This document shows, in pieces, positions 34,301 to 60,061 of a stretch of DNA of 64,000 bases (the stretch's first letter is position 1; every line of letters begins with the position of its first letter). The stretch comes from an uncultured Candidatus Altimarinota bacterium. GTDB lineage: Bacteria; Patescibacteriota; Gracilibacteria; BD1-5; UBA6164. The stretch is from positions 1 through 64,000 of the forward strand of contig CALLPL010000004.1 in assembly GCA_938015455.1 (NCBI GenBank). Direction: 5' to 3'. Made by a program: the position numbers and the translations under genes. The notes under the pieces are model-generated. The model made no database searches and was not told the DNA's origin. It saw nothing but the letters and a program-made list of their open reading frames with translations.

Positions 34301-34725
34301 TCTCTGTAGTAGAAAATCTTTCTAATGGTCAAGCTAAGGTAAAAGTTACTGCTGACTCAGGAGCTAATACAGTTGGTACATCTAGTGAAACTCCAGAAGT
34401 AGTGCTTAACTCACTTACTTTCACTGACCTAGCAGGTTCTGCTGGAGGGTATATCGTCTATAAAGATGGTGAAGCTTCAGTACAAGGTTCTCTTGCTGCA
34501 GGTACAGGTGCAAAACCAGTTGCATTTGGTGCTGTTGATGTTCAATTTGATACATCTAACACATATATTATAGTTCCAGCTGCTACGGTAGATGAAACTT
34601 ACTCTCTTGTACTTAGTGGTCTTGTTGCTAACTATGATGTAGTTGATTCTACTTCAACAGTTATCTCAGCTGGTCTTACTACGACACTAGAAAGTGATAT
34701 ATCACTTGGTTCTAAAACTTACTAA
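31321..34725 (+). CDS. S-layer-type surface protein with N-terminal SLH-like region
   Basis: 1134 residues. A signal peptide (residues 1-30, ending S-P-I-A-G-V-S-A) is followed by three SLH-like repeats (residues ~55-195) with L-P-R-K-E-A-T-K-V, V-S-K-I-E-A-L-K-M and A-S-R-G-E-M-F-I-W. A Pro/Val/Thr linker (residues ~200-222) leads into about 900 residues of Thr/Asp/Val/Ser-rich beta sandwiches with many D-D and E-D pairs, suggestive of calcium binding. Cys and Lys are rare. It should coat the cell, anchored by the SLH part. No TGA occurs in any of its 1135 codons, unlike nearly every neighbour. Strong terminator downstream. Confidence 0.82.
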   Translation: MSTFVQKVTSAVAGLAIAFSVVSPIAGVSAAYSSVQAADKLATLDVIVDQSANPADYRLGDNLPRKEATKVMMNLSTDIDVVDNCTGEFSDLTSADWACKYAETALANGMVAANANFRPDDLVSKIEALKMVFQGRGLERNNDADWRMGYVSAAVEMGVAPAAFTDYDAAASRGEMFIWAVNAIDAGEVADPSDLLCEILGTCDPVVVEPTDPVVVTPPVTTGGTAMISLSPQSPSNGLAAVNTPRVAMLTFDVTAGSSDVTLEQVTLYHVGLGDRQNVDNVTVYDSRNASVSKTKNFNQNDLDISFDRDIVVQAGTTETYTIAATLTDNGATNTTYQIELGSLEASAAVSGSGIVGAALTPTNVSNSGLLKVEDDTASDTVEIGDRVTLAGFSIEEKNDNEDVLIRTITLFQIGSVDSEYIEDLVLKADGVEIATGLMVDNDDELVMNIDYVLAADDKVDFELTGVISGDVNETVHFAFEGIDDIYATGMSTGFNIGFDGTNAPGDSSVDVASVETIEGAEIDAVFDRSDVDETKVDVDDVLVGTLELTANSNDYEVTEIQVTVSGTAGTAAIDDMYLDGSSFDSVSGNVYTFEDIVLSQGVTEVLPLEFDVKDDILLNGTNVIFDVQITEIDDDENNITYTLTSTPDIGDIISSNAFDQQSIDIETASFELTQTQVNDREVVLANGIETVLYKAKISVGDSDTISVEDFDLTLNAGSTLSVDLDDVIDSATLNIGGTTFDGDEDSDSIDFTSINYDIAAGTDNVELLVTAVLKDDDSIGVSETLIMELLAANIELEDSDGEDVVGASKVITTGSQNTTTTLREEGTFEIKVINEVDTDDNLENTVLAGESGVVIAELELEAEYEDMDVEELFFTVAGGDFSNTFDDAMIMNGSAVIADGAVITFDGTNTRIRFDDFTVADADDQMDAELVVNLNNITGTGDATSATAGVSTVTVSAADVDVEGADSNNTIVADTTGTVASEAVSVVPTLLVFSVVENLSNGQAKVKVTADSGANTVGTSSETPEVVLNSLTFTDLAGSAGGYIVYKDGEASVQGSLAAGTGAKPVAFGAVDVQFDTSNTYIIVPAATVDETYSLVLSGLVANYDVVDSTSTVISAGLTTTLESDISLGSKTY

Positions 34726-39719: not shown

Positions 39720-40748
39720 CTACTTGATCCACATAGCGTCACCAAAAGAAAAGAAACGATATTCTGAGTCTATCGCATGCTGGTAAGCTTTTTTAATATT
39801 TTCTGACCCAGCAAAACTTGAGACCAGCATCACAAGTGTCGATTTTGGGAGATGAAAGTTGGTGATGATACTGTCCACAAATTTCCACTGATAGCCTGGA
39901 TAGATAAAGATTTCTGTATCAAGACTTCCCTGTCATAGTTGTCATCTATTGTTGCTAAAACTCTCGAGTGTTCGAACCGAGGTTGTACCTACTGCGATGA
40001 TCCTCTTTCCTTCAACTTTATACTGATTTAATCTTTTCGAAGTCTCAGGATTTATTTCGGCATACTCACTATGCATATGGTGATCCTTGATATCATCTAC
40101 CTCGACATTGGCAAAGGTTCCAAGTCCAACATGCAGAAGTACCTTTTCTATCTTCACTCATTTTTCTTCAAGCATTTCTATGAGCTTAGGAGTGAAGTGA
40201 AGACCGGCAGTTGGAGCTGCAACACTTCAGGCTTTTTCTACTTCATTATATACTGTTTGGTATCTTTCGTCAGGTGCTTTCGAGTCTTTGATGTAGGGAG
40301 GGAGAGGAGTTTCTCCTATCATGTCTACGATGTCTAGAAACTCTTTTCAGTTTTTTGAAAACTCTACAACACGTCACTTTTCAGAGGTTGATATTATTTT
40401 CGCCGTAAGTTCTTCATGAAGTTTTACGTGAACTCAAGGCTTGAGTTTTTTCCCTGGATATACAAGACAGTCCCAAGTATTTTCCGTGAGCTTCTTGTGA
40501 AGAAATACTTCACATTCCTTTTCACTATCCTCTATAGTACCTTTTAGCCTTGCCTTAATTACATGTGTCGAGTTCACTACCAGTACATCGTTGTCTCAAA
40601 GATGTTCCACTATATCATGAAAGACAGCATCTTGTATCCCTCAAGTATCTTTATCGAGCATAAGGAGCCGAGCACTGTCCCGAGGTTCAGCAGGAGTCTG
40701 AGCTATACGTTCTTGAGGGAGATGATAGTCAAATTCTGAGAGTTGCAT
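39720..40748 (-). CDS. queA: tRNA preQ1-to-epoxyqueuosine ribosyltransferase-isomerase QueA
   Basis: A 342-residue enzyme transferring the ribosyl part of SAM to preQ1 in tRNA. Family marks: [11 protein letters not shown] at the N-terminus, [17 protein letters not shown] mid-protein, [16 protein letters not shown] and the C-terminal [16 protein letters not shown]. Full length. The ATG follows directly after the T-run of a terminator hairpin, as at uvrA. No other queuosine gene is in the window, so preQ1-tRNA may be supplied by salvage. Confidence 0.95.
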
Positions 40749-40806: not shown

Positions 40807-43383
40807 TTACTGTTTATAGATGTCATTTATATCTCATATCTCTGTGAGAAAGAGAATATTATTGTTTCCAAGATTAGTAATAGGAAATCATCGTATTCCT
40901 TTATTTCCTATTATAGGTGGATCGATTTCACCACTTGTCAATTTTCTGATGATATCCTGTCATATGATTTGTTCGTTGTGGGCCTTTGTAAGTTCAAGTA
41001 TTTCATCAATAGGCCTTTTGTCAGTCTTGTCTCATTCACCAAATACTATTTTGTCATCTATAAAACTTTGCTTGGTATAGTCGACACCATCAATAATTCA
41101 GGTTCCATTTCATAGTAAGCTTTTTCAGAAATCTCCTAATGAATCCCAAAAGTCTTTAGATTGGGTAGCGTTATTAAATTTTGAAATAAGATCTAGCTCT
41201 CAAACTCTCATCCCATATATTTTTCCTTCCATTACAAAAAATGGGGTATCTCCAGGATAAGTCAATGCTATAATTTCTTTTCACTCAGGAGTTGAGTATT
41301 TCTTTATATATTTTTGATGTTTTTTAAGTACTTCTATTACTTTTTCAATATCTCAACTTTCTCGAGCTTCTTTAGCCTCTCTGTCAAAGTTTCAAAACTC
41401 TGGGTTGGTGTACCAATTTACAGCTCAGGTTACAGCTCCAAATATCATACCTGCCCAACCAAGTTTTTTGAGGATTCATCATGGTATGGAGATAGTTCAT
41501 TTTTTAATACCATTTTTTATAAACTTACCTCATACATACTTTAATCCAAAACCTCATACAAATGACTTAATCGCGACATCACCAAGATCAGCTCCCGTTA
41601 CTCCTCATGAGTATCCAAGGACTGAGAGATGATTTCACAAGTAGGTTGCAAAGATAACACTTGCCATTTTTTCTCCGTAGATCTTGAGTACACCCATTTC
41701 ATCCTCTGAAAGTATATCAGAATTATTATCATCTGTAAGAACCTCAAGAAGATAGTTTCCGAGGTAACGTCTTGACTCATAAGCGCTCTGTGTTCATCCA
41801 TTTGCGAGAATGCCTGATATAGAGAATAATAATACAGGAAGACTTAATACATTTATTGTATTAAGGTCTGAGTTTCCAGATAGTATTGAAAATATAGCGA
41901 GGGCTTCATTTGTTTTTATCTTCTCCTTAGCTTCCTCTCTTTGTTCTGGAGAGAGTTTGAGTTTAGGGTGGTCAAAGAAATTTCCAGTCTTAAGCTCATT
42001 TTTGAATTTTATGAATTTCTCTAAACTTTCTATATCTTCAGGATCTACTTCTATTCATAGATTTTCTGTAACATTATCTCTAAATTTTTGATCATTAGAC
42101 GGGTTCATATACTCGTCTTTTGTCACAGATGTTCCTATTTTTCATATTGCGACAGCAAGAGTTTTTGATACTACTCAATAGTTTTCAACCTCATCAAATC
42201 ATTCTATTCCTCCAAACATGAACCCACTAACATCGCTTGATACTTCTCATAAGCCTTTTGCAGCTGGTACTCGTAGCGCTGATAAGCTTGATAGGTAGAG
42301 GATTGATATTTCTTGAAATTTTAATTCTTTCCAATTAAACCCTTCTTCCTGAGACTGTTGGTATATTTCTTTGAGTCGACCTTCTCCTAAAGCTTGTGTT
42401 TTTCAAAAGTGCCGCGCGAGACGTGTATTGATCTTCCCAGAAGGTTTGATGATGTTTCAAAGAGAGGACTTCGTAAGTCCAACTTTTAAGAGTAGTTGTG
42501 TTTTATCAGACTGATATTCCTCTAAAAGCGATGCTGCGTATTCTTCTTTTCATTCTGTATCTTTTAGAAGTGGGGCTGTATTGTTTCAGAGAGCTACAAT
42601 ATCATTATATGTTAACTCATCAATATTTCCGAGTATTTGTTCGCTGGCTTTTACTTCAAATTCTCCATGATCTCAGTTTAGTGCATATATGAGTTTTGCT
42701 CCAGTTCTATACATGATAAAAGTTTCTGTTCATTCTACCTCAGGAGATTTATCTCCTCCTTCTTCTTCCTTCTCTTCGTTATCAGGAGCCTCTTCTTTAG
42801 GAGTTTCCTCTTCCTTGGGTTTTACTGGTTTTACAACTTCTTTTTCCTCTTTCTCTCCTTCATCTTTAGCCGCTACAGCAGGAACTTTTGCCTTGATCCC
42901 TAGAATATTTCAAAACCAGCTTCCTTCCAGTTCACTCTTTAACCATGATACAGGATTTATATTTTCAGATAAAAATGCAACTCCTGTTGCTCCAATTCAA
43001 AAACTAGCAGCAATCTTTGCTATTACCGAGTCAGTAATGGCTTTTATCTTTCAAAAAATACTTCATCGAACAGCCTCTGTTGCAGTACTCTTTGCAGTAT
43101 CTACTGCATCACCTGCAGCTTTTTCTATCGTTGTAGCTGCAGCCGTAGCAAGATCTTTGGGGTTTGTGTTTGAGAGAGCTTCTATAAAAGCTTTATACCT
43201 CTCTTCAAAGTTTTCCTCTGTCTTTTCAGTAACAGCTTTAAGCTTCATAAGCTTTATATCTATAGCAGCTTTAGCTTTAAGTGCCTCCATTTTCTCCTTG
43301 TAGTCTGATGACTCAAGTCGTTGCTCTACTTTTTCATGTTCATCTTCCCTGAAAAAATGACTCATAACCTCTTTATGTCCCAT
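40807..43383 (-). CDS. Giant-operon protein A (858 aa), unknown
   Basis: An open frame of 859 codons when TGA is Gly; I found no in-frame TAA or TAG on scanning every codon. It has a charged helical N-terminus (H-F-F-R-E-D-E-H-E-K-V-E, residues 10-70), an Ala/Gly-rich hydrophobic patch near residue 140, and a Pro/Glu/Lys linker (residues ~185-225, V-K-P-V-K-P-K-E-E-E-T-P). A long mixed region follows, with Gly-rich hydrophobic segments around residues 380 and 570-660 (G-A-V-T-G-A-V-N-W-Y). There is no signal peptide. It has its own promoter and terminator, and follows gene B after a terminator. I do not recognise the family. Confidence 0.8.
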
Positions 43384-43407
43384 AGTATCTTTTATAAATA
43401 ATATTCT

Positions 43408-43435
43408 CTTATATTCTAGCATATGTTTCTGTAAA
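43408..43435 (-). promoter_or_regulatory. Probable promoter of gene A
   Basis: On the minus strand TTTACA (43430-43435), a 16-base spacer and TATAAG (43408-43413). It starts just past the gene B terminator and gives a leader of about 20 bases ending GATACT before the ATG. Confidence 0.55.
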
Positions 43436-43440
43436 TAACA

Positions 43441-43470
43441 AAAAACCCAGTGATTCATCACTGGGTTTTT
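43441..43470 (-). terminator. Terminator of gene B
   Basis: A perfect inverted repeat AAAAACCCAGTGAT / ATCACTGGGTTTTT separated by two bases, ending in T5 followed by TGTT on the minus strand. It isolates gene B from gene A. Confidence 0.88.
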
Positions 43471-43482
43471 GATAAAGAGTTT

Positions 43483-43950
43483 TTATGCGGCTTTATTACC
43501 TTTTCAAAATAGAGATTTTGCGGCTTCAGGAGCCCATCTATATGTAGATCAAGGATCTTCTTTTACTCACTTAGCAACGTTAAACAGTTGCCGTGTTCAA
43601 TACATTCAGAGTCAAACTGCTGCTGCAGTTCCTACAGCTGGCGCAGCAATTATACCAGTTGCTGTAAGTATTCCAGCTCAAACACCATAGTTAAGAGCTC
43701 CTTTTTCAGCTACTCCCCATAGTCATCTCTCAGCAAATTCACCAGTAGCATTCCATGCAGAAGCTCCAGCAGCTATTGCTGGCGCTATAGGTCATGCTAG
43801 GAGAGGAGTAGCACTAGAGGCTCCAGTACTTATAATATCTGCAACGTTTGTTGCTGCGTTTGATACAGTATTTACAACCGCTCAATCAGCTAGGTAATTC
43901 GCACCTACCAGAGCCGTTGTTCAGAATAGAGCACTTTTTAGAGTAGACAT
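43483..43950 (-). CDS. Giant-operon protein B, small Gly/Ala-rich membrane protein (155 aa)
   Basis: A 155-residue protein, very rich in Ala, Gly, Val and Thr, with two or three weakly hydrophobic spans (for example P-I-A-P-A-I-A-A-G-A and I-I-A-A-P-A-V-G-T-A-A-A-V-G-L-G). Its last ~30 residues are polar with P-G-S-T-Y-R-W-A-P. About eleven of its glycines are TGA. Of the seven cluster genes it has the best promoter and one of the best terminators, so it is probably made in quantity. The composition suggests a self-associating membrane protein, but the function is unknown. Confidence 0.75.
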
Positions 43951-43981
43951 AGGTTTCCTAAAAGTAAGAATTAATAAAAAT

Positions 43982-44009
43982 ATTTTATATTAAATAATAT
44001 ATTTGTCAA
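43982..44009 (-). promoter_or_regulatory. Promoter of gene B
   Basis: Minus strand: a consensus TTGACA (44004-44009), a 16-base spacer and TAAAAT (43982-43987). The predicted start is about 25 bases before the gene B ATG. The site lies in the 79-base gap after gene C. Confidence 0.7.
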
Positions 44010-44029
44010 ATAAAAAGTATAATTTTATT

Positions 44030-46192
44030 CTATTGAGCATCTCTTAAGGCTCTGAGTGTATTTGATTCTAGTTCAACGAATTCATAAAACTCAGGGAGAG
44101 AGTACCTATTTCTTCCATAGAGTCTTGTCTCTATCTCCCATGACCGTAAAACTTCACTTCACATTCATAGCGCTAAATCTCACCCAGCAAATGCCATTCA
44201 TTGTCAGAACTTTCAGAGTTTTTCAGCCATTTTTACGGATCACATTCATGTAAGTGCTCCTAGTGCAGCATCACTTCCGACGTCAAGAATCAAATCATCG
44301 TAGTTATCATACCCTTTTGGGTATAGGATTTCAGATATTCAGGCCATAGAGGCACCAGCTATTCCAGCTACAATAACAGGGCTTAGAGCAATTCCTGCAG
44401 CAGTAGCTGCTGCTCAGATAACTATAAATGCTCCAAATGCAGATGCAAACATTAGTCCCATCTTTCCTATTTCTTGAGCGATATTTATAGTACTATCAGC
44501 GAAATCCCAGAAACCTATTCCTTGTATATCCATGTAGAGCTCAAATATGTCACTATCTACTCCTGTGAGATTAAAATCTTCTGCTGATTTTGTATGAAAC
44601 CATCCATCATCGAAATTTTCTTCAAAACTTTGTACTAACACTTGTTGTCAATCCTGTATAGCATTAAGAAATACCTCCCCGAGTTCATTACTATCTACCT
44701 TTGACTTTTTACTATTGAGTGAATCATGTACTCGCAAGAGAATAGCAATTTTCATCTTTTGTTCAATATCGAGATCATGATAGTTAGTTTTAGAATTTAC
44801 AGTATCCATAATATCTGCAAAACCCATGTCTCTGAGAAATACCTCTCCATCATTTGTATCTCACATTCACACTGCATGCTTCTCGATACTTCCAGAAACT
44901 AAGCCTAGTACATCTATAGGGTCAAGATTTCACATCTTTGGATCCTCAACCTTGAAATTTGAATCAGGATCAGTTTGTATTTTGGAAATAATCCCGTTTT
45001 CTCTATGACACACATAGAGCAGAGCATCTTGCGCAGCTTCGGGGTCTCTATATCTATCATCAATTCTATTGTTATGGTACCAAGACTTTCCTGCTCCAGG
45101 ATCTACTTGTTGGGTAATAAATCTACCTGGCCTTCCTGTAACAATCTTTGAATACTCTAGAAAATATTTATCTTCGACAGTATTTTTCTTAAAGGTATCA
45201 AGTACTACAGTATGAACCTTGTGTTTCCACGCTCTATATGAGCGTTCTACTTCAGTAGATTGGTACTGGTTTCTGTCGAGTTTATAATGAGTATCTGCCA
45301 TATACTGGAGAGCTTCTTCCGGAGACATAGCTTCTATCATCAGATCAAGTACCTGAAATACTTTCGACTCACTCATGTTTGTAACGACTGATTCATCTTC
45401 AGGTGTTTTAGGGTTATCTTTTTTGCCTGTTTCACTTTCTTTAAACAGGGCAGCTCCTCACTCATAGTTTTCACTCAGACCCATTATAAAGTCGATATAC
45501 CGTTTTGAATAATCTCATAAACGTTTTTTGTCTTCGACTATCCTATCTTTAGGAAATGCGTTACTTTTAAGATCTTCCTGAGCTTTTTCTATCACGCTTT
45601 GAGCAATCCCCTGTAAGTATACAAGGTCCATCCCTCACGCAGGGATATCTTTAAGATCTTTCCAAGGTGATATAGACAAGTTTCTTGGTGAAAAGGTATC
45701 ATCTTCATCAAGAGTTCCATTCCACAGCACTCAAGTATTGTTTCTAAATATCTCTTCCATAGCATTGAGGACAATCTGTAGATCAGCGAGCTTGGCACTT
45801 ATCTCTCTTACAGCTTCTTGTTCTTGTTTATACGCAAGTTTCGAAAGATCTTCACGACTGAGACTGACTTTACATACACTTACTTCATTGCTATCGAATT
45901 TTATCTCTATAATTGTAGTGGTTTCAACTCCATAAGTATCCAAATGATGAGTAATCAGATGTCAGGCAATTACCTCGAATCATAGAAATGCCTCTTTTGA
46001 GAGTCCAAGTTCTCAGTAAATAGTTTCTGATACCGCATCGATTTTATTTTTTGGGAGTGCCTTTTTGGAGTAGAGAGCCATAGCTATATTGTTTTTTATA
46101 GTTCGCTCTGAGCTTCAGGTTACTACAGTAACAAAATCCTTCGAAGTCGAAAGATTTTGTTGTTCAGTAGTATTAACTTTCTCTATTCACAT
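44030..46192 (-). CDS. Giant-operon protein C (720 aa), unknown
   Basis: A 721-codon open frame with TGA = Gly; the second codon is itself TGA. The N-terminal ~480 residues look cytoplasmic, alpha/beta and charged (V-E-T-T-T-I-I-E-I-K-F-D; Y-R-A-W-K-H-K-V-H-T-V-V-L). Around residues 590-640 there is a long hydrophobic Ala/Gly stretch (M-F-A-S-A-F-G-A-F-I-V-I-G-A-A-A-T-A-A-G) that could span the membrane twice, followed by a Trp- and Arg-containing tail. No family is recognised. It starts 2 bases after gene D, so it is almost certainly cotranslated with it. Confidence 0.78.
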
Positions 46193-46194
46193 TT

Positions 46195-49100
46195 TTAACT
46201 AATTATTCTTCATAATCTATCAAATCTTGCATTCTTTCTTATAAATGTTATGAGATCATCAGTCCCTTTACTTGCAGCTGCTTTGAGGTCACTTGCTATA
46301 TTCTCTCTAATCCTTAGTTTCGATTCAACATAATTTGCAATCTCTTCATTAGACTTAATCTCATATCAAGATTTTTGTAACTGTGATTCTAAATCAGAGA
46401 GAGAAGTGATTGAACTATTAGTAGCATCGATTTGTTTAAAAAGTGAATTTTTAAGTTCAAACTCGTTCACTGTTTCAATCTTATCTCCAGAGATTTCATG
46501 ATAGTAAAATATTCTTGATACGAGATCTTCAGCTTCTTGATGAAGGGTTCGAGGTTTTACAGAAACAGTATCATTTGTAGGGGGAGGAGTTCGTTTTACA
46601 GCAGCATCTATAGTAAAGTTCCTTGTGCTTCATTTTTGTATAGTATTGCTTTTTCAGTAGTCCATAAAATCACCCCATAGGACATCTGCACTTGTGCTAT
46701 TTGGATCAATTCATTTTTCAACTGCGTAATTCTGAAAACCAGGATTTGAAGCTAATTGTTTTTTAAAGCCAATCTCACGAGTAGCAAGCTTGTATTCTAA
46801 CTCTATACTAGAGAGAGTTTTGAGATCACCTGTTACTCATTTTAAATCACTAATTCTTTCTCTAGTTGACTTTAAATTATCCTCAAAAGAGGTAAGTTTT
46901 GTTTGATCAGTAACATCTACTTCACTTGGTCTAACTCCTTTTAGGCGTGTATCCAGTACCGTTTTTTGCATCTCTAAGTCTTCTCTACTCCTGATTAGAG
47001 CCAATAGTTCATTTCACTTATCAAATGGTTGAGCAAAGCTGTTCCAAGCATTTACAGCATCCTTGAATTTAGACTCAGGAGTAAAGAATACTTCTGTACT
47101 GTTTCTTATGTATGATTCAGGACTATATATATCAACTGCTTCAGCGCTCCTTAGAACAGTCTTTTTTGCAGCTTGTGATAGGGCACTATCATCATCGTAA
47201 AGTGTAAAATCTAGTGTTTTTGCTTGAGCTATAGTTATATCTCCAGCAATTATTCCTCGTAGTGCATTTTCAAACTGCACAAGGGCTATTTTTGTATCAG
47301 GCTCGAATGCTCTGTTTCTTACAGCGTCAATAGCACCTTTTTTTGATCTATCAAGTTTTATTGCTGTATCATAAAAGTCTTTTGCTTTTCCATCTAGCTT
47401 CCTTCAATCTACTGCAACATAGTCGCTATAAAAATTTCAAAGCTCATGCTGTAGTTTAGCATGTTTTTGCATTATATCTTTATAGTATCAACTTGAGTCA
47501 TCCTTAAGCTCTGTTTGTAGTTCTCAACTTGCCTCAAAGAAATCTTTGTATCTTTTTTGTAGCTTTTCAAAATCCTCAACCCTTCTTTGTTCGTCCCCTA
47601 ATCATTCAATACGAATTATCTCTCATCGAATATTTCATAAGAGTTTAGATCTCAGTTCTTTAGTTATTTTACTTTTTGATTCATAATCTGTATTAGCTGT
47701 ATCAAATTCTACTTCGCTTGCATAAGGTCTTTTTGCTACGTCATATTTTTTTCAGGTGAGAATCTGTGTAACTATATGATGAAAATGACCTTGTGTATAA
47801 TCAATAGTAGTTTTTCATTTTTGAACCTTTATGTCTTTGTAAAGTTTCTCTAATTCAGCTCCAAGATCTTCTCTTGCTAGTGAGTCATCTAACATAAGAG
47901 CGATCTCTCGTTCATGGTTAAAGAGCCGCACGAAGTCATCAGATCCACTTACTCTTGCTTCTGGGATAGAATATCTTTTGTCGTAAAGATCTTCTCATTT
48001 ATTTTTTGCATCGTTAATTTCTACATCAGTATATTTTTGAGCTTTTCTAGCAAAGGCATATGTTCATCATTGAATATTTCGAACCATAGTATCAAACTCT
48101 GCCTGAGTAACTATCCAATTATCATTCTGAGTTTCTCTAAGAAGCTTATTAAAGTCTTTTTTATGAGGTCAATTACTTGCGTGGATCTCTTTTCACAATA
48201 ATTTGATAATTTTAAACTTAGGAAGTTTTCAATCAGCAATACGCATGATTTCTTGAGTAATTTCGTCTGGATTAGTATGAACACGTCATTCGATAATGTC
48301 TCCTAAGAATTCTTTTATGAGTTTGTTTCTTGTTCTTTCGTCGGTGTTACTAAGTGTTCCATCAAGATCGATGGTAGCTTCAACATATTTGAAAAAATCA
48401 GTCTTGTCTAATTTTTCAAGTTGTGACAATCAGAATCATTTTGTGTTATCTTCAGGTAAACCTTCATAAAGCTTTCATATTGCGCTTCGACCATCAGCAA
48501 AAGCCTTATTAACTTGTTCTACTATTGGTCATTTAATATTACTGTTTAGGTCAAAGACTTGTCACGCTCTTCATGGATATTCTAGTCCTTCATCAATTGC
48601 TTTGAGCCTCAACCAAAAGGTCTTACTATTACTATATTGTCTTCACCATTCTAGTCATAGGATTCTATTCCCTCTAAGTCTATTTAATTGTTCAAGTCTA
48701 TGAGGATCATCTTGGTATTTTTTTTCAAAAAAACTAAGAGAGAGTTGCTTTGTCCGAATATCTTCTTGTCAATCATTTGCTGAACTTAATCCATCAAATA
48801 TTGATACCTGCAGTTTTGCTGATAGAGGGTCATCATACATCTCTTTAGCATGCTTTAATATTTTAAATAACCTATGCCTCCAAAAGAAGACCTTTCAAAA
48901 TCAAGAAAGTGGCTTTTCACTCGTGAGAAAACCATTGGGATTAGGATCCTTATCTTTACCTCAAAAGTTAATAGCAATAACATCCTTAACATTTCTTTTA
49001 ACCGATTCGATAGGACCATAGATTACTCTAGCATGGGCATATATTAATGCTCATGTATATGCTCACGCTGCTATTGTACTAAAGATTCAAAGAATCCAGT

Positions 49101-50055
49101 GTGCATCCCATCAAGACATGAAAATATCGTCAATGGGAGATATTAATACTCCTTCAAAGTCAACAATAGATCATATAAATGCAGCAAATGAGAAGTCAGC
49201 TTTATCAAGCTTTTGTAGTACCAGTTTCATTTTGTAAACAAATTGGAGAGCTCACTTCTTAGTTTCAAATAGCAGGGGTTTGTGTCCACCTATCTGTACA
49301 GTTACAGTATCATTTTCTCACGCTTTTTCGACATCTGATAAAATGCCATCTAGATAATCGTCGATAACCTCTATGTCTAGACCATTCTCATATAAGGGAG
49401 AGTTTTTCTTGAACTCTTTAATAAACTTTTTTAACTCTTCACTTTCATCTGAGGTAAAAAGGGTATCTTTATCAATCCTCGCAAAGAGGCTTGAGAAAAA
49501 ACTATCCCAATCATCCTTGTCTATATTAGGAGAATCTATTTGAATCTCTTGCGCGAGCCCAAGGATCTCATCACTATCCATGTCATTGGTAGCCATGAAA
49601 AGATCTTCGATATCTTTGAACAGATCCCAAGATTCGTCTCACATAAGCCTTGCTGGGATTATTCTCTCAGCAGCTTTTTTCGCATCCTTACTGATACCAT
49701 CAGCATCAGTGACATAGTTTCTGTAGATTCATTCTGCCCTGTTTGTATATGCTTCAAGCTCATAAGGAACTCTCATATCTGAGTCAGAAATACCGTGCAT
49801 AAACCCGAATATTAACTCCATTTGCTCTCTATCATGTGAGCTGACTCAATTTAAATCGAGAGAGTCTATTTTTCCTATAACTTCTCTTACATGAGGATAT
49901 GAACTAAATCATCCGAGTCTTTTTAAGATTTCTTCTTTTGTTTTCCCCTCTGATGTCGATGCTCCTACACTAGTCGTAGGAGTACTAGAAACACTCGGAA
50001 TACTCGTAACAGGAGGAGTGTATGATTCGAAAAATGTACCACTTATATCTGCCAT
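46195..50055 (-). CDS. Giant-operon protein D (1286 aa), unknown
   Basis: 1287 codons without TAA or TAG; I checked the TGA-rich stretch 47281-49317 codon by codon. It starts with a Ser/Thr/Pro-rich flexible region (residues 10-40) and an acidic helical part with repeated D-S-D/D-K-D. One or two membrane segments lie around residues 275-335 (F-S-F-A-A-F-I-G-S-I-V and I-L-G-I-F-S-T-I-A-A-W-A-Y-T-W-A-L-I-Y). About 900 residues of charged helical sequence follow, with coiled-coil character near the end. The overall plan is a membrane anchor with a very long stalk. The family is not recognised. Confidence 0.78.
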
Positions 50056-50065
50056 ATTTTTTGTA

Positions 50066-53000
50066 TTACGCTCTATTTAAACTATATAAATAGTCTATAA
50101 AATTAACTCAATGCTTCTTTGCCCATTGCATTCAGATTACTCCCCAGTTTTCTTCTAATACCAGTATTAATGCTCCTCTTGATCATTTTAATTCATTTAG
50201 GAGTTTCAGTTGTTCTTTATCACTAGGGTTAGTTTTTAACATCTTTTCTTGAACTTTAATCTCAGCATTTATTACACTTAATATTTCACCCATTTTTGTA
50301 TCTGGATTTTGTATGAGAGCCCACAGTGTATTTGTGGGAATTTTCTGAGCATCCATTGTCTTGACAAGCTTTTCTAAAGGGGGCATTATACCTTGAGGAG
50401 CTTCTCACATACTTATATTAAATATTTCTTTTCCTTTTACTTCCGCGACTGTATCTTTGAAGGTATCTTCCCCTCTCTCAATACCATCAAGCTCTTCGTA
50501 CATAGAGAGTACCTCGTCTAGTTCATCATTAGACCCAGCAGTTCGTGCCTGGTCGCTGAGTCTTGCTATATAGGTACTTACATGATTGTTGAGATTTAAT
50601 TGAGCTCTGTCTTTTTCTCTTCCACTTGGGAGAGATGCGATAGTATCTTTTTGTATAGTAGTTACACTTAAGACAAAGGCTTTTGTTGTAGTAGCTGTTA
50701 GTATGCCAGTAGGAATAGGAGCGGTTTTTAGCTCTAAAGAACTGGTATTTATACTTTTAGCTATAGTAGCACCTCGCTCATTGAGTTCTGTCTCAATTCG
50801 ATCAAGATCGGTCTTGATATCACTACTGTAGAGTTTTGTAGGAACCCCAATTCTAGCTAGGGATCCTTGTATATCAGCGAGCAGGTCTGAGTATTCTTTA
50901 TCTTGTCAGTTAATAGTTATTCCTGAATCGTAGATAAATTTACGTGCTTTCATCATATTTCCCTCTACCAAGAGTTCTGCTCTGAGAGAAGAGTATTCTT
51001 GACTTAAGACCCCGAGTCGTTCCGCTGATGAATTAGTAGGAAAGGCTAGGTCTGCCGTGAGCCTCCCAAGACGTGAACTTGCTCCTCTTGAGACTTCGAG
51101 AGCGTATGCCTCAACGTTTACCTTGTATGCTCCTACAACATCCTCAAGCACTTTTTTAGCAGCTCAACGTATATCACCCGCTGATACAATACTATTGAGC
51201 TCTTCTATAGGAGAGGTATTTTGACGAAGGATTTCATAATATCATTCTGCATTTGCTTGAGGTTCTTTAAGTACCGCTATATCTGCAGCGAGTTCCTCGA
51301 CACGTTTTTCGTATCTCTCAGGATCAGCAACGATACTCGCTCTGAGCGACTTCTTTGCTCTGGTTTCTATCTTAGCTCTGAGAGCAGGACTTTGTTCTCT
51401 AAGAGCAAGACTCGCTAAAAGTATAGTTTGTCTTTCGTTGAGTTCAGAGAGTTCTTCTTTTATTCTTTTGGCAAGTTCAGGATCTGTACTATGTTTTGCG
51501 AGGAGAGCTTCTCATTCGACTATCATTCTATCTACTTCATCAGGAGTAATTCGTTCTATTTTTCAAAGGAGAGAAATAGGGACTCCAGTGAGCCACGCGA
51601 TACCATCACTTACACCGTTATATACCTCTGAGAGAGTCTCAGTTGCAAAGGTATTCGTAATACCATCTGCCTTATCATTCCAAACATTTACTGCAGCAGC
51701 AGCAGTTACCTTTGTTTTAACAGTTTCATATTCTGCGATGATTGCTCAGATAATCGCTACATCAGGAGTCCCTGCTAAATCTGTATCAGCACGTATTGCC
51801 TTGAGATCTGCTATGACTCTATCAAGATCCTGTTTGTCTGCATTTTGATAATTAAAAATATTTGGGAGTGTCACAGCGATGGCTGTTTCAACTCTTTCAT
51901 GAGTTCATTTCCCAGCTTTTTCATTATACCGAGAGAGTCTTTCAACATTATCTCTGATACTTTTGTTAAAAGCGGTTTCTCATATTACGTATGGATCTAC
52001 TACTTTCTTAGTAACATCATATCTTCATTCTGAGAGAACATCTCCTACTGTTTTATCTCCTGGTTTCCTTGCCTTGAGAAGGAATTTTATATAGTCCAGC
52101 ATCTCACTTTCACTTATTCATTCTGCAAGAGCTGCGGCCTTTACATCGGCAGGGAACACTTTATCAATATTATCCTTATTTGCTTCTAAATCTGTAGCAA
52201 GCATTGAGGTAAATCATGGATGTCAGGCTGAAAGAGAAAATATAGTCTCGAGTTCTTCTACTAAGAAGGTATCTTTTCATTCACCATTATTATGCTTGGC
52301 ATGCTCTCTATATATTATAGCATATCCATATTTAAACTGATCTTCTACTCCGGAGATTTTTCTCCACCACTGCTCGATTTCACCTGGAGTACTTGTTGTT
52401 CCAGACGTAGCACGGTTTGGTGAATAACTTGTTCCTCATTTCATTTGAGCCTCTAACCATTTATCACCTCCATATTCTGCCATAATATTTTTGAGAGGTC
52501 CTTTCAGAACTGCAGCGAGGAGTATGGCATAAGATGGATATTTAAGCCATTTTGGGACACTAAAGAATATTGAAGCAAGACCAAACACCATAGCAACAGG
52601 GAGTATCCCACTACCTACTATTTTATCGAGGATCTTCCCATTTGCAAGATCAGCCATAACGTCTCACTTTGGATTTCCTTGAGAGTCGTAGTAGCCTTCT
52701 TGTATTTCTCTAAGACCTACAACCGTAAGAGCTCTCTGCTCTATACTTGGATCAAGGCTATCTTTGTTCGTTATTTTTGCTTTAAGAATCTCAAGTCGTT
52801 GAAGCTGTACATGATTCCCTCTTTTTATATGATCTTGAATTTTTGGGTCACTATTTGCAGATTGTAATTTTTGTATCTGCGTGTCGACTTGTGATACAAA
52901 TACTGTTCGGTTATCTTGCTTATTTCCAGCATACCCTGATGTATCGGAAAGCATATCATTATACACCCATTCTCTTTTTGTTTTAGGATTTACAAGTTTG

Positions 53001-53977
53001 AACTCAGCCACCGTAGAGTCAAATATAGCAACTATGTGTCCAGCCTGATTTTTGTTATCAAGTTTTATTCAGTGAGAGAGAGTCCCTATGAGTGCTGCTA
53101 TTTGCATATCACTTTGACTTAGATCATAGCTCGTACATGCTGATCAATCATTATTTTTTAATGTCCATCTGTTTGAGGATGGATCATGATATATGAGAAT
53201 ACCTTCTTGTTGAAGTTTTTTTGTAAGGACGATGAGAACTATATTTCTTCGTTCTTGATCTACAGCATTATCTCCAAGTGATGTAAGTTCTGTTACAAGC
53301 TCTTTAGTAGTTTTACTTTTAAGTTTCGTAGTTTCACTCACTTGTTTTTTCACAGCATTATCTACTATTACTATAGGAAGCATACTTTCGTTTATTTCCA
53401 TACCAGTATAGCTTTTGAGAACAGCAAAGTTTTCAGGTGATGGTTTACCGTCAGTTACTACTTTTTGGCCACTAAGCCTCCCGAGCATTCTTTGAAATTC
53501 TTTAGGGTGGTGAGAAATATAACTCAAAGTAGCCATATAGGTTGTATCTCATGCAATACCATTAACAGGATTTACTTCATTTGGAGCATGGTCTTCATCA
53601 ACAAGAGCTTGTTGAAGTTTTTTGATAGCACTTGAAAACTTAGGATTATCTATTCTTGGGTATGTATTTGAGGCAATAGGTGTTGCAACTACTAGAGGTG
53701 CTGTAGCGAGAGGAGTGAGAGTTCCTGCCAGTACACCTCGCGCGTTTTTAAATTCGTGAAACTGGTTAAGTTTATCTTGAGCCCATGGTTCATATATGAA
53801 ACTATTTAGATGCCCTTCAAAAGCTGAAATACTCGCTTGTACTTCTACAGGAGCATTTTTCCACTCTCCATTTGGATACTTATCCTCCATTATAGAAATG
53901 AATTCTTGTGCTGTATCCGGATTAATATTGCTTCCAGGATTAGTGATCTCTTTAAGACGATTTATATGATTTGACAT
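50066..53977 (-). CDS. Giant-operon protein E (1303 aa), unknown
   Basis: 1304 codons without TAA or TAG on a full scan of the TGA-interrupted parts. The N-terminal ~450 residues are soluble-looking. A hydrophobic segment lies around residue 445-480 (G-S-G-I-L-P-V-A-M-V-F-G-L-A-S-I-F-F, then Y-P-S-Y-A-I-L-L-A-A-V-L). The remaining ~800 residues are mostly helical and charged with long heptad-like stretches. Like D, it reads as a membrane-tethered filamentous protein. It has its own promoter, and D follows 10 bases after its stop. The family is not recognised. Confidence 0.78.
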
Positions 53978-53990
53978 AGTATCTGAGTAA

Positions 53991-54018
53991 AATATATATT
54001 TATACCTTTAAAGTGTAA
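53991..54018 (-). promoter_or_regulatory. Probable promoter of the E-D-C unit
   Basis: Minus strand: TTACAC (54013-54018), a 16-base spacer, TATATT (53991-53996), immediately downstream of the gene F terminator. The leader is very short and ends AGATACT before the gene E ATG. Confidence 0.45.
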
Positions 54019-54023
54019 CATAT

Positions 54024-54059
54024 AAAAAATCCAGTGACAAAATATGCAACTGGACTTTT
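54024..54059 (-). terminator. Terminator of the G-F unit
   Basis: Minus strand: AAAGTCCAGT pairs with ACTGGATTTT (one G-U) around a 13-base loop and is followed by further T. It separates gene F from gene E. Confidence 0.75.
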
Positions 54060-54081
54060 AGTATTTTTATGATGACTCTAT

Positions 54082-56112
54082 TTATGCTTTCGAAATAGTA
54101 TATTTTCAACTAGTGACCCCTCAATCTTCAGTGGGAATATCTGATACAACTGACTCATTATCTATTAGTTTAATGAGGAGATTAGCAACATCTTTTTTGG
54201 GGAGTGAAATTTTTTCTTTTTGTTCACCCCAAATCCTTACTTTTGCTTTCACTCATAAGGTTAAATTTTGAGATGATATTTCAGCTGTATCGAGAGTTAT
54301 TTTCTCAATAGTGGCACGATCATGAGTAACTCAAGAAAAGCTTATATTATAAGGAACTTCTCCAAGAAAAAATTGTCAGTTCTTGTAATCAAGAGAAGTA
54401 GGAGTTGGTATACCTAGATCATTGCATGCATCTTGTTCTTCATACGCAAGTATCACGGGGAACTTTGTTGCTTCTAGTAGAGCTTCACGAATCTCGATAT
54501 TTCTATATGCTGTAAACTGTTCTCTGAATGCATTCCTCTCTGCCTCAGTCATAACAGGTGTTTCATGACTTTGCTCTGCTTGAGTAGTCCTGTCTGTTTT
54601 TGTATTAGGAGTATCTTTTGCCTTAAGAGTTGTGGATTCTACATAGGGTATAGCATCACTTCTCTCTACTGTAGTAGGAACTACATCGTAGCCTCAAACT
54701 TCAGAAGCTCCTTCATCAGTTTTTGTTTCATTATTACTAGCTGTAGCCTCTGCAGTATCTCAAGCAGCTGTTACTGCTAGGGTACTTGCTCATCACGAAT
54801 ATGCTGTTAAACTTTTTTTAAGTTCTGCTTTTTTTCTTTTAAGTTCTGCTTGCTTGACTTCTTGTTTTTTCTTTGGAAGAGAGTTTAGCTTCTCTATCAT
54901 TCATTTTCACTCATTTTTAAAATCTTCTTTTGTGAAAATAGTTCCCTTTTCATCTGAGAGGAGCGAATAAAAGCCCTTTACTTTTAGATTATCTGTATCT
55001 CAACTGAGGAGATTTTTCCAGAAGCTTTCATGGGTGAAATCAATTTTTTGACTATTCAGGTAGTCAAAGAATGGATCAAGTTTTTTAAAATCAAAGTTCG
55101 TAAAAAATCAGTCAGGAATCATTCCAGATACAGAATTTCCAGTTGTAGAGCTGAGTTCTGAGAGCTGCGCGAGGGAATCTCCTCTTTTTTTACTATTTAC
55201 ATCGATAAATCATTCAAGGAGATCACCAAGTCAGAGCATAGAGAGGAGTATTCCTAGCCAAGGATTTTCCTTTGCGTACTCTCCTAGTTTCTTCCCAAAG
55301 TCATCTCAAGCAAATTTTCGTATCATTCCTCATATAGAAGCATCCATATCCTTAATTCTTTCCGCATATTTTTCAGTTTTTTTCCGAGTTTCATTATAAT
55401 ACGCTTCGTGATTTGTATTGAGGAGTCTGAGTTTTTCAGGATCATTCTCTCCCCTGTATATAGCATCAATGATACTCGCATTTGTAAAATCAATGTCTTT
55501 TTTCCCAGTTGGAGTTACTGAGTTATATACCTTATTTGTTCTCACAGTAAAGTCTTCGATCTCTTGGAGCATTTCACTAATAAGAGTTTCTCCAGAACTT
55601 TCTTCTACTTCTTTTCAATCGGATCATAGGCTGACTACATGCATTACTCACTCTGCTGCGAGGGTTCATACATCGTCTATATGCTTGATCCATCTCCTCC
55701 ATACAGGGAGCATCATCGTGTTACGAATCTCAGGTGGGAGGTTCGGGGCTTTCTCATTTACTATCCCTTCAAATTGCTCCTGGAAGAATGCCATAGACTT
55801 TCACGTTGCGATATAACTTCCATATTCCTCTTTGAGACTTGCGAAGTTTTTCCCGTTTGGGAGTACTTCTACACTTTCTTGAGAAAATAAAGTATTCTGC
55901 GCTTTGATCAATATAGCTTGGTCTTCTCATTCATGGTTCGAAATAGCATCACTCAGTACTTGTCGAAGAGGATCCTCTATAAGATCTTGCTGCTGTTCAG
56001 CTGGAAGAGCCTTTATCTTATCTGCAAGTTCTCAAATGATTTGTGCCTCATTAGAGCCTTCAATTCCCCCTTCGATAACAGCGCTAAGGGATGCTTTTAT
56101 TTCGTTTGACAT
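54082..56112 (-). CDS. Giant-operon protein F (676 aa), unknown
   Basis: 677 codons with TGA = Gly. It is largely helical and soluble-looking, opening M-S-N-E-I-K-A-S-L-S-A-V-I-E-G-G. A single mildly hydrophobic segment lies near residue 300 (P-W-L-G-I-L-L-S-M-L-G-L-G-D-L-L). A Lys/Glu coiled coil follows (K-K-K-Q-E-V-K-Q-A-E-L-K-R-K-K-A-E-L-K-K), then a Thr/Ser/Glu-rich low-complexity linker (residues ~440-520) and a C-terminal beta-like domain of ~130 residues. It begins 22 bases after gene G, so the two form one transcription unit. The family is not recognised. Confidence 0.78.
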
Positions 56113-56134
56113 AATATATTTGTATTAATATTTT

Positions 56135-58990
56135 TTATTTTAATTTTCCTAAGGCCTCCTCATATGCTCTTTTTGTTTGAGGATTACGGTTTAGCATACT
56201 TTTAACAACACCTTCATTTAAGGTAATCCCCTTACTATTTTGTACTACTATATTTCCAGCAGGATCTCTACTTATAGTAAAGCTTTTTCCTGAAGCTGAA
56301 GTAAATGGAACTTCAGTTCGTGTTGATATAGTTTCAATTCTTTGCGGTCTTGTTGTTCTCATATCTTCTATTCTTGGTTGATTTTCTTGCGTGATACGAC
56401 GCTGAGGTTGAGTTGTTTTAACTCATGAACTTTTTCCAAGAGGGGGGAGAACTTGTCATATAAGTACTCATGGGTTTTCTCAGGTTGTTTTAGTCCTGGT
56501 TCCTATAACTCAACTAGCTTGAGCACGAAGTGGTCATTGCTGTGAAGCTAATTGCTCAGCAGTAACGGTTCTTGTTTCAATAGTTGTTCTTGCTTCTGCC
56601 TTAGGAACGTTTCTACCGATAGAAATTGGTTCAACTTTAATTGTATTTATTGGTCAAGTAGGAGTAACTCATATACTCCCATCCTTTGTTCTAGATAACT
56701 TGATTCTATCTACAGCCTTCCCAGCTCACTTGAGAGCAGCCACCATTATAAGTGCTTGCACAAACTCTTCCCAAGTGTAGTTCTCGATATCTCTATCTGT
56801 ATCTCCAAATTGAATTTCTATTTCTTGACTTACTCAAACGAGAGCTGCGGCTTGAACAGTTATGGATCAAATTCACTTGAGTCATCGAGTAAATTTATTT
56901 ATATTCATTTTATCCCCTATCCTTGTGCTTCATAGTTTTCATAGAACTGGTCTGAGTACTCAGAGTGCTCCGAAAAATGCTACAGATTTACGTATTTCAT
57001 GAATATCCCCTGAGCCTTCGAAAAATCCTGATGTAAATACATCATCCTTTCGTAACATATTATGAAACGGATTACTTGCCTCATAAAATGCGAGCCCTCA
57101 TATTGATGACTTTCCTCACCAAGCTCAAACAGTTCATACTCATCGAACGAATTTATTTGATGAGTCTGTAATTTTTCCAGCACCAAGTGCTCTAGCTCCT
57201 ACAGAAACTCACTTGATTAAAGCGCTTGCAGCAACAGCCCCAACTCCAAGAGGGAGTAAGCTTGTTACTGCTATAAGACTCAGATCAATTGCAGCATCAA
57301 TATTTTCATCAGCCATATCGATCCAATCCCAGGTACTTGATTCAGCAAGCCCACTCATATCAGCGTAGAGTCATTGGAGGTTATCCGTTCATCCTCTATC
57401 ATCTTCCTTTGCTACAAGTCTATAAACAAAACTGTCTTTCATATATGCTTCAAGAGCAATTTGAATTTGTGTATCTGCTACTTCTGAGAGTACTAATTCA
57501 GGTTTTCCTGCTGCTTTAAGTTTTTTATTTGCTGCGTCTACTTGCTCAGCGAGGAGATCATAGTTTTCAACCTTCATAATCTTTCTCCGTATTTTACTAA
57601 AAGATGTTGAAAGTTCAGTTACTATATCATTAAGTTCTGCGGGATTAAACTCTTTTGGTAGAGCCTTGTTTATAAGCTGTTTTATCTCATCCTTTTTACC
57701 ATTTTTGATCAGTTCTACAAAATCAGCACTTTGCAGTAAATCTTGCACTCCTTCATAGTATGGTTTTTGAATAAGTCTATCAGTAACAAAGCCTTTTATA
57801 AGCTGACTATCACCATTTTGAGACCAGCCAGTCCTTGTGAGATTATACATTTGGATAAGCTTTTCTTCTTCGGCCATGCTAGGATTATTAGTAAGAAGAT
57901 CAGATACAGTATGAATATTATCCAAAATATCATTTCCATAAACATCAGGGTTACTAGCTCCTAGATAAGCATCCTGTCTTTTATCATATTTCGCCATTTC
58001 CGCAAATATGCTTTCTACTTCTGCTTTTCCATCATTTCAAGGAGTATTAATTGCAATAATTAATTTAGCTGTGAGTTCTTCTATAGTCTTCATTGATTCT
58101 CTCATCTCTTCATCTCCACTTCTAAAGGATTTAAAATACAGTCCTTCAACAGTTTTTTCAGCCTTAAGTTTCCAAATTGCGATGTACTCTGAGAGACCAG
58201 GGTAGGCTTTTTCTATACTCTTTATTTTTTGTACTTCAGAGATTCTTTCTTCTCCATCTTCATGGGCTAACCAGATCACTCAATCTCTCAGTATGTAAGT
58301 AGTTTCATCTGGATTTTCTTCAGAAGCTTCATAGCTAGGTTTTGCTACATCAGGTTCTTTTCATTCATCAGGGAGAGTCTCATTTTGGTATGGTTCATCT
58401 GTGAGTGGTGTATCCCCATAGTTTGGAGGAGAATCATCATATGGGAGCTCTCCTGTTTCAGGTTTTACTAAGGCTTCAGGAGCTTTTTCAGCATCATCTG
58501 GGGCAATTACTTCTGGCTTATAACTAGGAGTAACGCTACCTGGAGATGCTTCATAAGATGGCTCTTGTTCGGTAGTAATTATAGGAGCTTCAAGTTTAGG
58601 AGCCCTTACATAATCTGCTGCGACATACCCAGTACTTCCATCCGGAAGTGATACGTGAATATAGAGTTTTCCATTTTCAGCAATAAGGTGATCATTTCAA
58701 TCTGTATTAATAACTCGAAGTTCTCTGTCATCTTCTATTCTTTTCCCTGTATCTGTATCATTAAAGGTATTAACTACAGCAGCAGTTCTCACTATTAATC
58801 TTCCCGCATCTCATGAATCAAAAGTATGAACAGTAACAGTATCTACTTTTGAAAAGATCTCTCTCTCTAGTAAGGCAATATCAGTTCTTGATGCATTTAG
58901 TACAGGAGAGTTATCTATATGGTCCTGTATAGATGCCTCATCTGTTACTTCTGATCTAAAGTCAGGAGTATTTTTTAGGGACATAAACAT
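56135..58990 (-). CDS. Giant-operon protein G (951 aa) with an SH3-like region
   Basis: 952 codons with TGA = Gly. Residues ~50-140 look like a bacterial SH3 (SH3b) domain: G-R-L-I-V-R-T-A-A-V-V-N, then R-E-L-R-V-I-N, and D-G-S-T-G-Y-V-A-A-D-Y-V-R at the end. Such domains usually bind peptidoglycan or peptides. A Pro/Glu/Tyr-rich linker with repeated P-S-Y-E-A-S and P-S-Y-K-P motifs follows (residues ~145-235), then a helical part. A hydrophobic Ala/Gly-rich segment near residue 560 (L-I-A-V-T-S-L-L-P-L-G-V-G-A-V-A-A-S-A-L) and further Gly-rich membrane-like stretches precede a basic tail. First gene of the cluster. Start ATG at 58990, or two codons later. Confidence 0.78.
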
Positions 58991-59158: not shown

Positions 59159-60061
59159 ATGCTCCCAAGACTCTTTAAATACGCGACAAAAAACATTCTC
59201 AGGAATAGTTTTTTAAGTGCTTCATCAGTTCTAATACTCACACTATTGATGTTTTTCATAAATATCCTTATTGTGATGCATGATGTGAGTTTTCGCTTAA
59301 TAGAGTGAATTAATGAGAAGCTTACTATTTCTCTCTATCTTGATGAGGAATATGATAGAAATTCAGTAGAGGTTATTGATCTCCAGTCAGATATCGATAC
59401 AGCAATCCCAGGGATAGAGGTTACCTACAAGACCAAAGACGAAGTTCTGGAAGAAATTAGAGAGCGTGATCCAGAACTTGTGAGAATACTTGAAAGACAA
59501 AACCCCCTTCCTGAAACTATTACTATAGAGGATATTCCTCTGAAACAGTACGGAGTTCTGAATAAAATTATTGAGAATAAGCTCTTTGTTCTCTCTGATT
59601 CAGAGGAGTTTGGGGAAGAATACTTTTCTACCTATTCTCGTCAGTTTGAGCGTATTAATAAAGTAATTTCTGTTCTTGATATGCTGCAGATAGGGCTTTA
59701 TATTGTTATTGTTACTTTTGTTGTTTCTATTGCGATTATTGTATATTCGATTATCGGGAATTTTATATACTATTACAGAGACGAGATATATATAACGAGA
59801 CTTGTATGAGGGAGTAAAGTCTTTATCTATGGACCATTTTCACTTCAAGGAATGATGTATGTTGCTCTTGCATTCATATTTTCGACAATATTTTTTATTC
59901 TCTTCCTGCAAAATATTCAGATAGTATTCGAACTTGGAGATATAAATGAAGTTTATACGGGAGATCTTCCATTTGTTCTCATGATAGAAGCGTTGGTGTT
60001 CCTCTTTATTGGGTGACTTAGTTGATTCCTCTCATCACGAAGATATATACGAAAAAAATAA
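59159..60061 (+). CDS. ftsX: Cell division protein FtsX
   Basis: A 300-residue membrane protein with the FtsX layout: a basic cytoplasmic start (M-L-P-R-L-F-K-Y-A-T-K-N-I-L-R-N), the first span (residues ~20-42), an extracellular domain of ~125 residues containing R-Q-N-P-L-P-E-T (the family's conserved N-P-L-P), then three more spans (about 170-195, 225-248 and 270-288). FtsX normally works with the FtsE ATPase to activate peptidoglycan hydrolases at the septum. No ftsE is adjacent, which is unusual. It starts a plus-strand operon and is 7 bases from the next gene. Confidence 0.88.

What the first reader, a model, noticed from the sequence alone, without database searches (positions are those of the whole stretch)
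40807..58990. 18-kb cluster of seven giant or unusual proteins with no recognised function
Genes G, F, E, D, C, B and A run head to tail on the minus strand, encoding 951, 676, 1303, 1286, 720, 155 and 858 residues. They share a plan: long charged helical stalks, low-complexity linkers, and Ala/Gly-rich hydrophobic segments; G also has an SH3-like region. They occupy over a quarter of the window in what should be a small genome. A multi-part envelope or host-contact machine is a plausible reading, inferred from composition and context only.
Basis: partly seen in the sequence, partly recalled or inferred. Interest (0 to 1): 0.85.

Follow-up and report, generated by a model that had tools for sequence, protein, structure and literature searches.

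The report
Swappable giant-protein cassette in Gracilibacteria
Between two ordinary housekeeping genes, these tiny bacteria that read one stop codon as glycine carry a cassette of giant, unclassified, probably cell-envelope proteins; whole versions of the cassette are swapped between lineages while the surrounding chromosome stays almost unchanged, which suggests an interface with hosts, rivals or viruses.

Summary
The seven reading frames are real (code 25, one strand; A starts at 43383, 858 aa). None has a significant Pfam, NCBIfam or PHROG match. AlphaFold models of C and of a shared module match no PDB structure.

What is really there is a polymorphic locus at a fixed site. In 16 of 16 genomes (window included) where ftsX and queA were recovered on one stretch, the gap holds several large unclassified proteins. 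They come as allele types: (F)-E-D-C-B-A, or G plus a ~930-aa protein, or mixtures. Near-identical chromosomes carry different types (flanks 89-98% identical, insides non-orthologous). The C tree rejects the genus as one clade (p-AU 1.7e-11), while the adjacent ftsX tree keeps it whole.

G and C share a module seen only within this class: an Asp/Gly motif, then an Ala/Gly-rich hydrophobic hairpin. E orthologues carry PG_binding_1, a G orthologue a weak SH3 match, two distant C-like proteins a calpain-like domain. The proteins are extremely Cys-poor and lack signal peptides.

Best reading: a peptidoglycan-associated, membrane-inserting envelope assembly, diversified by cassette exchange. Location and host contact are inferred.

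The parts
40807..43383 (-). Gene A, 858 aa; last gene, next to queA; Glu/Lys/Pro-rich linker and two hydrophobic segments
   Evidence: orthologues next to or near queA in G008, G009, G019, G002; start chosen from terminator position
43441..43470 (-). Terminator-like hairpin between B and A
   Evidence: 13 pairs followed by a T-rich tail; consensus match only
43483..43950 (-). Gene B, 155 aa, 37% Ala+Gly, hydrophobic
   Evidence: small Ala/Gly-rich genes at the same position in relatives; no significant sequence match between the window's B and theirs
44030..46192 (-). Gene C, 720 aa: helical domain about 120-530, then the hairpin module
   Evidence: 17-22 family members; alignment A1; model
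44081..44743 (-). Hairpin module of C
   Evidence: Class-wide module profile A8, E 9.4e-34
46195..50055 (-). Gene D, 1286 aa
   Evidence: BLAST 4.4e-24 to G015; profile of the other D proteins 2.3e-14
50066..53977 (-). Gene E, 1303 aa
   Evidence: iterated profile joins nine E proteins
53273..53695 (-). E residues 95-235, the region that may correspond to the PG_binding_1 domain of E orthologues
   Evidence: Orthologues: PG_binding_1 E 9.4e-9, 4.4e-6, 1.1e-4, 6.5e-4, 1.6e-3. Window E itself: only a weak endolysin PHROG match, E 0.034, and no Pfam hit
54082..56112 (-). Gene F, 676 aa
   Evidence: orthologues in G008 (4.9e-33), G009 and G011
56135..58990 (-). Gene G, 951 aa, first gene, divergent from ftsX; SH3-like region about residues 90-128, Pro/Glu-rich linker, hairpin module
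   Evidence: 17-member family
56507..57544 (-). Hairpin module of G
   Evidence: Profile A8, E 1.5e-52 (the profile contains this sequence); profile comparison with C, E 6.6e-8
39720..40748 (-). queA, conserved flank of the cassette slot
   Evidence: Pfam PF02547 3.2e-129; 65-71% identity in relatives
59159..60061 (+). ftsX, conserved flank of the cassette slot
   Evidence: Pfam FtsX 1.7e-6; tree of relatives

Best explanation
The seven genes are one allele of a polymorphic cassette locus that sits between ftsX and queA in this family of code-25 bacteria. Its products most likely form an assembly in or on the cell envelope. E (PG_binding_1 in orthologues) and G (SH3-like) would hold it at peptidoglycan. 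G and C, and perhaps the small protein B, would insert in a membrane through Ala/Gly-rich hairpins. The large, acidic, helical, almost cysteine-free remainder would project outward or pack into a multi-part complex. The exposed parts would be under diversifying selection from hosts or prey, competitors or phages, met by replacing the whole cassette through recombination in the conserved flanks. Shown: fixed site, conserved order, allele types, exchange between lineages, shared module, peptidoglycan-binding domain in orthologues, cysteine depletion. Inferred: export without a signal peptide, membrane insertion, assembly into one complex, and the selecting agent.
For: Slot filled in 16 of 16 genomes with both flanks on one stretch. 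Conserved order F-E-D-C-B-A. Wholesale replacement on near-identical backgrounds: G010/G040 and G011/G029. Genus clade rejected for C, p-AU 1.65e-11, but kept whole by ftsX. PG_binding_1 in E orthologues and inside a 470-aa cassette gene of G002 (coordinates). SH3_3 in a G orthologue, E 0.001. Shared hydrophobic hairpin module. Cysteine 0.84 per 1000 against 10.2 in cytosolic-class proteins of the same genome.
Against: No signal peptide on any of the seven, so the export route is unknown. PG_binding_1 is not significant in the window's own E. No experimental localisation. The hairpin is only moderately hydrophobic and poorly modelled. The low-cysteine test also picks out some cytosolic proteins, such as a DnaK-like and a TypA-like protein.
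Confidence: 0.45

Rival explanations
1. Antagonism cassette: the proteins are effectors released onto or into prey or competitor cells, inserting through the hydrophobic hairpin as pore-formers and carrying variable cargo, with cassette turnover driven by an arms race.
For: Large proteins without signal peptides and with one central hydrophobic segment; calpain-like protease domain at the C-terminus of two distant C-like proteins; one of 64 modules gives a weak match to the SseC translocator family, E 0.0017, and others to a holin (0.008) and a toxin (0.012) family, none significant after 64 trials; rapid turnover.
Against: No immunity gene, no delivery system and no recognisable toxin domain in the window cluster; several co-conserved giant genes in fixed order look more like a complex; the pre-toxin family PT-TG, where it could be located, lies outside the locus.
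Confidence: 0.25
2. Surface receptor or phage-escape locus: the proteins are the cell's own exposed layer and cassettes turn over because phages use them as receptors or are excluded by them.
For: Serotype-like exchange at a fixed site; envelope clues.
Against: No phage linkage was tested; an anti-phage defence library was not searched.
Confidence: 0.12
3. Cytoplasmic scaffold or cytoskeleton-like proteins that happen to evolve fast.
For: No signal peptides; acidic, helical, giant.
Against: PG_binding_1 and SH3-like domains in orthologues; hydrophobic hairpins; cysteine depletion; cassette exchange is unusual for an intracellular scaffold.
Confidence: 0.1
4. Remnant prophage, plasmid or integrative element.
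For: Variable content at one site; AAA-ATPase and PD-(D/E)XK-type genes inside two relatives' cassettes; one weak tape-measure-like match in a relative.
Against: No capsid, portal, terminase or integrase; no boundary repeats; no tRNA in the window; no phage record matches G and no plasmid record matches C; no confirmed viral-contig hit; GC and TGA usage like the neighbours; never seen empty.
Confidence: 0.05

Closest known systems
Serotype-like hypervariable loci (capsule or O-antigen loci between fixed housekeeping genes; own knowledge)
   Same: Fixed flanks, alternative gene sets in one slot, exchange between lineages on otherwise similar chromosomes.
   Different: Encodes giant helical proteins, not sugar-synthesis or glycosyltransferase genes; no envelope polymer pathway.
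Polymorphic toxin systems (contact-dependent, type VI or type VII effectors; own knowledge)
   Same: Large variable proteins without signal peptides, hydrophobic segments, occasional enzymatic C-terminus in distant relatives.
   Different: No conserved trafficking domain, immunity gene or delivery system found; several giant genes in fixed order.
Giant surface proteins of Vampirococcus lugosii (PMC8080830)
   Same: Giant proteins in a related predatory lineage, inferred there to serve attachment.
   Different: Those carry WD40, PKD, fibronectin and similar domains, none of which was found here; no cassette exchange is described in the passages read.
Hypervariable PTD-repeat gene of a BD1-5 gracilibacterium (PMC6851277)
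   Same: Local hypervariation in a code-25 gracilibacterium.
   Different: One repeat-bearing surface gene with synonymous variation; its repeat is absent from all loci fetched here.
Type III translocators (SseC/YopB family)
   Same: Layout only: no signal peptide, helical, central hydrophobic hairpin.
   Different: No significant sequence or fold match; no secretion apparatus in the locus.

Membership tests
Serotype-like polymorphic cassette locus | Same chromosomal flanks in different lineages | tested here: met
   ftsX and queA border the locus in 16 genomes; exceptions: split or rearranged in G026 and G016
Serotype-like polymorphic cassette locus | Alternative, non-orthologous gene sets on near-identical backgrounds | tested here: met
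   G010/G040 and G011/G029
Serotype-like polymorphic cassette locus | Gene tree of the cassette conflicts with that of the flank | tested here: met
   long branches are a caveat
Serotype-like polymorphic cassette locus | Product exposed on the cell surface | not testable with these tools
   Only indirect clues
Capsule or O-antigen synthesis locus | Glycosyltransferase, polymerase or flippase genes | tested here: not met
   No such Pfam or NCBIfam match in the seven proteins
Polymorphic toxin system | Recognisable toxin domain or pre-toxin domain | tested here: not met
   None in the window; calpain-like domain only in two distant C-like proteins; located PT-TG hits lie outside the locus
Polymorphic toxin system | Adjacent immunity gene | tested here: inconclusive
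   No small conserved partner other than B, whose sequence matches nothing
Type III translocator (SseC/YopB family) | Sequence or fold match to the family | tested here: not met
   Best 0.0017 in one of 64 modules; no PDB fold match with E <= 0.001
S-layer protein or Sec-exported adhesin | N-terminal signal peptide | tested here: not met
   No N-terminal hydrophobic stretch in the seven
Prophage or integrative element | Structural, replication or integration genes, or boundary repeats | tested here: not met

The most novel reading that the evidence does not exclude
A previously undescribed, class-specific cell-envelope machine built from giant hairpin-module proteins, exported without signal peptides, that mediates contact with or killing of host bacteria and whose cassette type sets host range.
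Probability: 0.25. Interest if true: 0.88.

Novelty: new variant of a known kind. Interest (0 to 1): 0.62.

Why it matters
How Gracilibacteria-like bacteria recognise and exploit hosts is largely unknown and most are uncultured. A locus with conserved flanks and interchangeable cassettes is a ready marker: cassette type can be read from metagenomes and tested against host identity or phage susceptibility. The families and the hairpin module are absent from the libraries searched, so they also define new protein families that account for a large unexplained stretch of very reduced genomes.

Tried and rejected
Library scans of the seven proteins found nothing above cut-off. Scans of genome contigs and viral contigs with C or its profile gave no confirmed hit. 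AlphaFold of C (pLDDT 59, about 80 for much of residues 120-530) and of the module (64 rows, pLDDT 65) against PDB, and of the module against viral models, gave no E below 0.001 and TM-scores mostly 0.1-0.2. PDB profile searches gave no meaningful match. Prophage or plasmid origin rejected. Pre-toxin domain: a 1e-4 match among pooled relatives could not be attributed to one protein, and a genome search put the PT-TG matches outside the locus. The same pooled scans also list neighbours such as RelA/SpoT and ClpB that are not part of the system. 'Relatives lost the cluster' rejected: relatives without a C match still have the slot filled by other types. A link to FtsX function was considered; adjacency is conserved but the cassette is inverted in G011 and G032, so a shared divergent promoter is not a constant feature. 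PTD-repeat gene: not this locus. Literature searches found no description of the locus (open-licence library only).
Full report
Observation. The seven frames exist as described under code 25 and are far beyond chance: longest open stretch 1313 codons, against at most 244 in 100 shuffles and 215 under table 11. A most likely starts at ATG 43383 (858 aa), because the upstream GTG overlaps a terminator-like hairpin at 43470-43441. Gaps between G-F, E-D and D-C are 22, 10 and 2 bases; F-E is 104 and C-B 79. Flanks are housekeeping genes: mfd, tsaB, a PH-domain gene and queA on one side; ftsX, an ATP-grasp/MATCAP fusion and an OMP decarboxylase on the other. GC and TGA-glycine usage match the neighbours. 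The shared module (below) occurs at two places in this genome, both in this cluster.

No known family. None of the seven reaches a curated cut-off in Pfam or NCBIfam, and PHROG matches are weak. C was found in 20 of 118 genomes searched, the window's own included, at only about 20-30% identity to the window.

Conserved order. Fetching the neighbourhoods showed the same order in several genera: F-E-D-C-B-A in G008 and G011, E-D-C-B-A in G003 and G005, the same order in G009, and parts of it elsewhere. Best-pair BLAST E-values for the window's proteins: C 1.6e-53, A 2.7e-51, F 4.9e-33, D 4.4e-24, E 2.0e-9, G 1.6e-8; the profile of the other D proteins finds the window's D at 2.3e-14. B is assigned by position, size and composition only. 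A whole-length identity near 24% is itself no proof of homology; the E-values and profiles are.

The slot. Locating queA and the MATCAP gene in 48 family genomes and fetching the gaps showed the slot filled even where C is absent. In all 16 genomes with ftsX and queA on one fetched stretch (window, G004, G005, G008, G010, G011, G012, G019, G020, G024, G025, G029, G032, G033, G040, G044), the gap holds at least two large proteins of the new families. Types: I, (G/F)-E-D-C-B-A; II, a G-like protein of about 930-1520 aa plus a different ~930-aa protein ('A2'); and mixtures with further families. G011 and G032 carry the cassette inverted. In G020 other genes, mfd among them, lie in the gap too. 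In G026 and G016 the locus is split or rearranged.

Cassette exchange. G010 and G040 are 93% (ftsX), 90% (queA) and 98% (a neighbouring gene) identical, but share only 23-28% inside, with different genes. G011 and G029 are 89-93% identical at three flanking genes but carry a six-gene and a two-gene cassette. Sister species G005 and G003 (ftsX 90%, MATCAP 86%) have C 45%, E 37%, D 27% and A 49%, while G005's C is 46% identical to that of another genus. The ftsX tree keeps the genus as one clade (100/100); the C tree places G003's C with G008's (98/97) and rejects the genus clade (p-AU 1.65e-11). Long branches are a caveat, but the flank comparisons do not depend on the tree. The assemblies are unnamed and mostly fragmented.

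Shared module. Profile comparison joins C, G and a third family, E 6.6e-8 to 5.4e-17. Iterated search found about 70 copies in the fetched relatives: a D-I-x-G-x-G-x-x-D-x-x-D-like motif, a hydrophobic Ala/Gly-rich hairpin, then a Gly-rich stretch. A search of 380 genomes drawn across the phylum found it in 12, all of the window's own class. Class-wide tallies: C profile 40 of 353, G profile 65 of 341, A2 profile 41 of 341 genomes. The Asp/Gly motif resembles a calcium-binding loop by eye only; this was not tested.

Location clues. E orthologues carry PG_binding_1 in five genomes, best 9.4e-9. A PG_binding_1 match (2.3e-8) also falls inside a 470-aa cassette gene of G002 next to queA. G004's G has SH3_3 at 0.001. 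Distant C-like proteins of 1479 and 1576 aa end in calpain-like domains, 1.2e-9 and 2e-5. There is no N-terminal signal; each window protein has a hydrophobic segment, though not every orthologue does. Cysteine is 5 in 5974 residues, against 10.2 per 1000 in cytosolic-class and 7.5 in exported-class proteins from a sample of the same genome, so about 61 would be expected at the cytosolic rate; 85 related proteins average 1.17, most flanking genes 3.9-9.7 and FtsX 0.33. This fits an extracytoplasmic location but does not prove it.

Structure. C is helical with moderate confidence for much of residues 120-530 and poor confidence over the hairpin. The module model is helical with poor confidence in its hydrophobic part. 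No fold match is meaningful. These negatives are weak, given shallow alignments.

Conclusion. A polymorphic, exchangeable cassette locus is well supported. That its products form a peptidoglycan-associated, membrane-inserting envelope assembly is the best inference (0.45); a prey- or competitor-directed effector cassette is the main rival (0.25).

Noticed in passing
31321-34725 (+): A 1134-aa protein with a signal-peptide-like start and an SLH match has no TGA-glycine codon at all (85 glycines, nearly all GGT/GGA), while other genes read TGA for up to half or more of their glycines. This looks like a highly expressed S-layer-type protein with its own codon bias.
   Followed up: partly
60069-62456 (+): An ATP-grasp domain fused to a MATCAP-type (tyrosine carboxypeptidase) domain sits next to ftsX and is kept in most of the family.
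   Followed up: partly
L039:10360-11496 and L036:873-2459: In two relatives (G015, G018) the cassette region contains genes that look like mobile-type AAA/DUF4143 or AAA-ATPase_like/PDDEXK_9 proteins (attribution by N-terminal sequence, not by a separate scan).
   Followed up: no
L035:2545-5553: The C homologue of G023 has a long C-terminal extension with Cys and His motifs that look like a papain- or transglutaminase-type fold by eye; no Pfam match supports this.
   Followed up: partly
L151:8412-11684: Another large exported-looking protein of the same genome (1090 aa, signal-peptide-like start) contains no cysteine at all.
   Followed up: no
59159-60061 (+): ftsX stands without ftsE beside it; the best FtsE match in the genome is a truncated frame at the end of contig C3.
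   Followed up: partly
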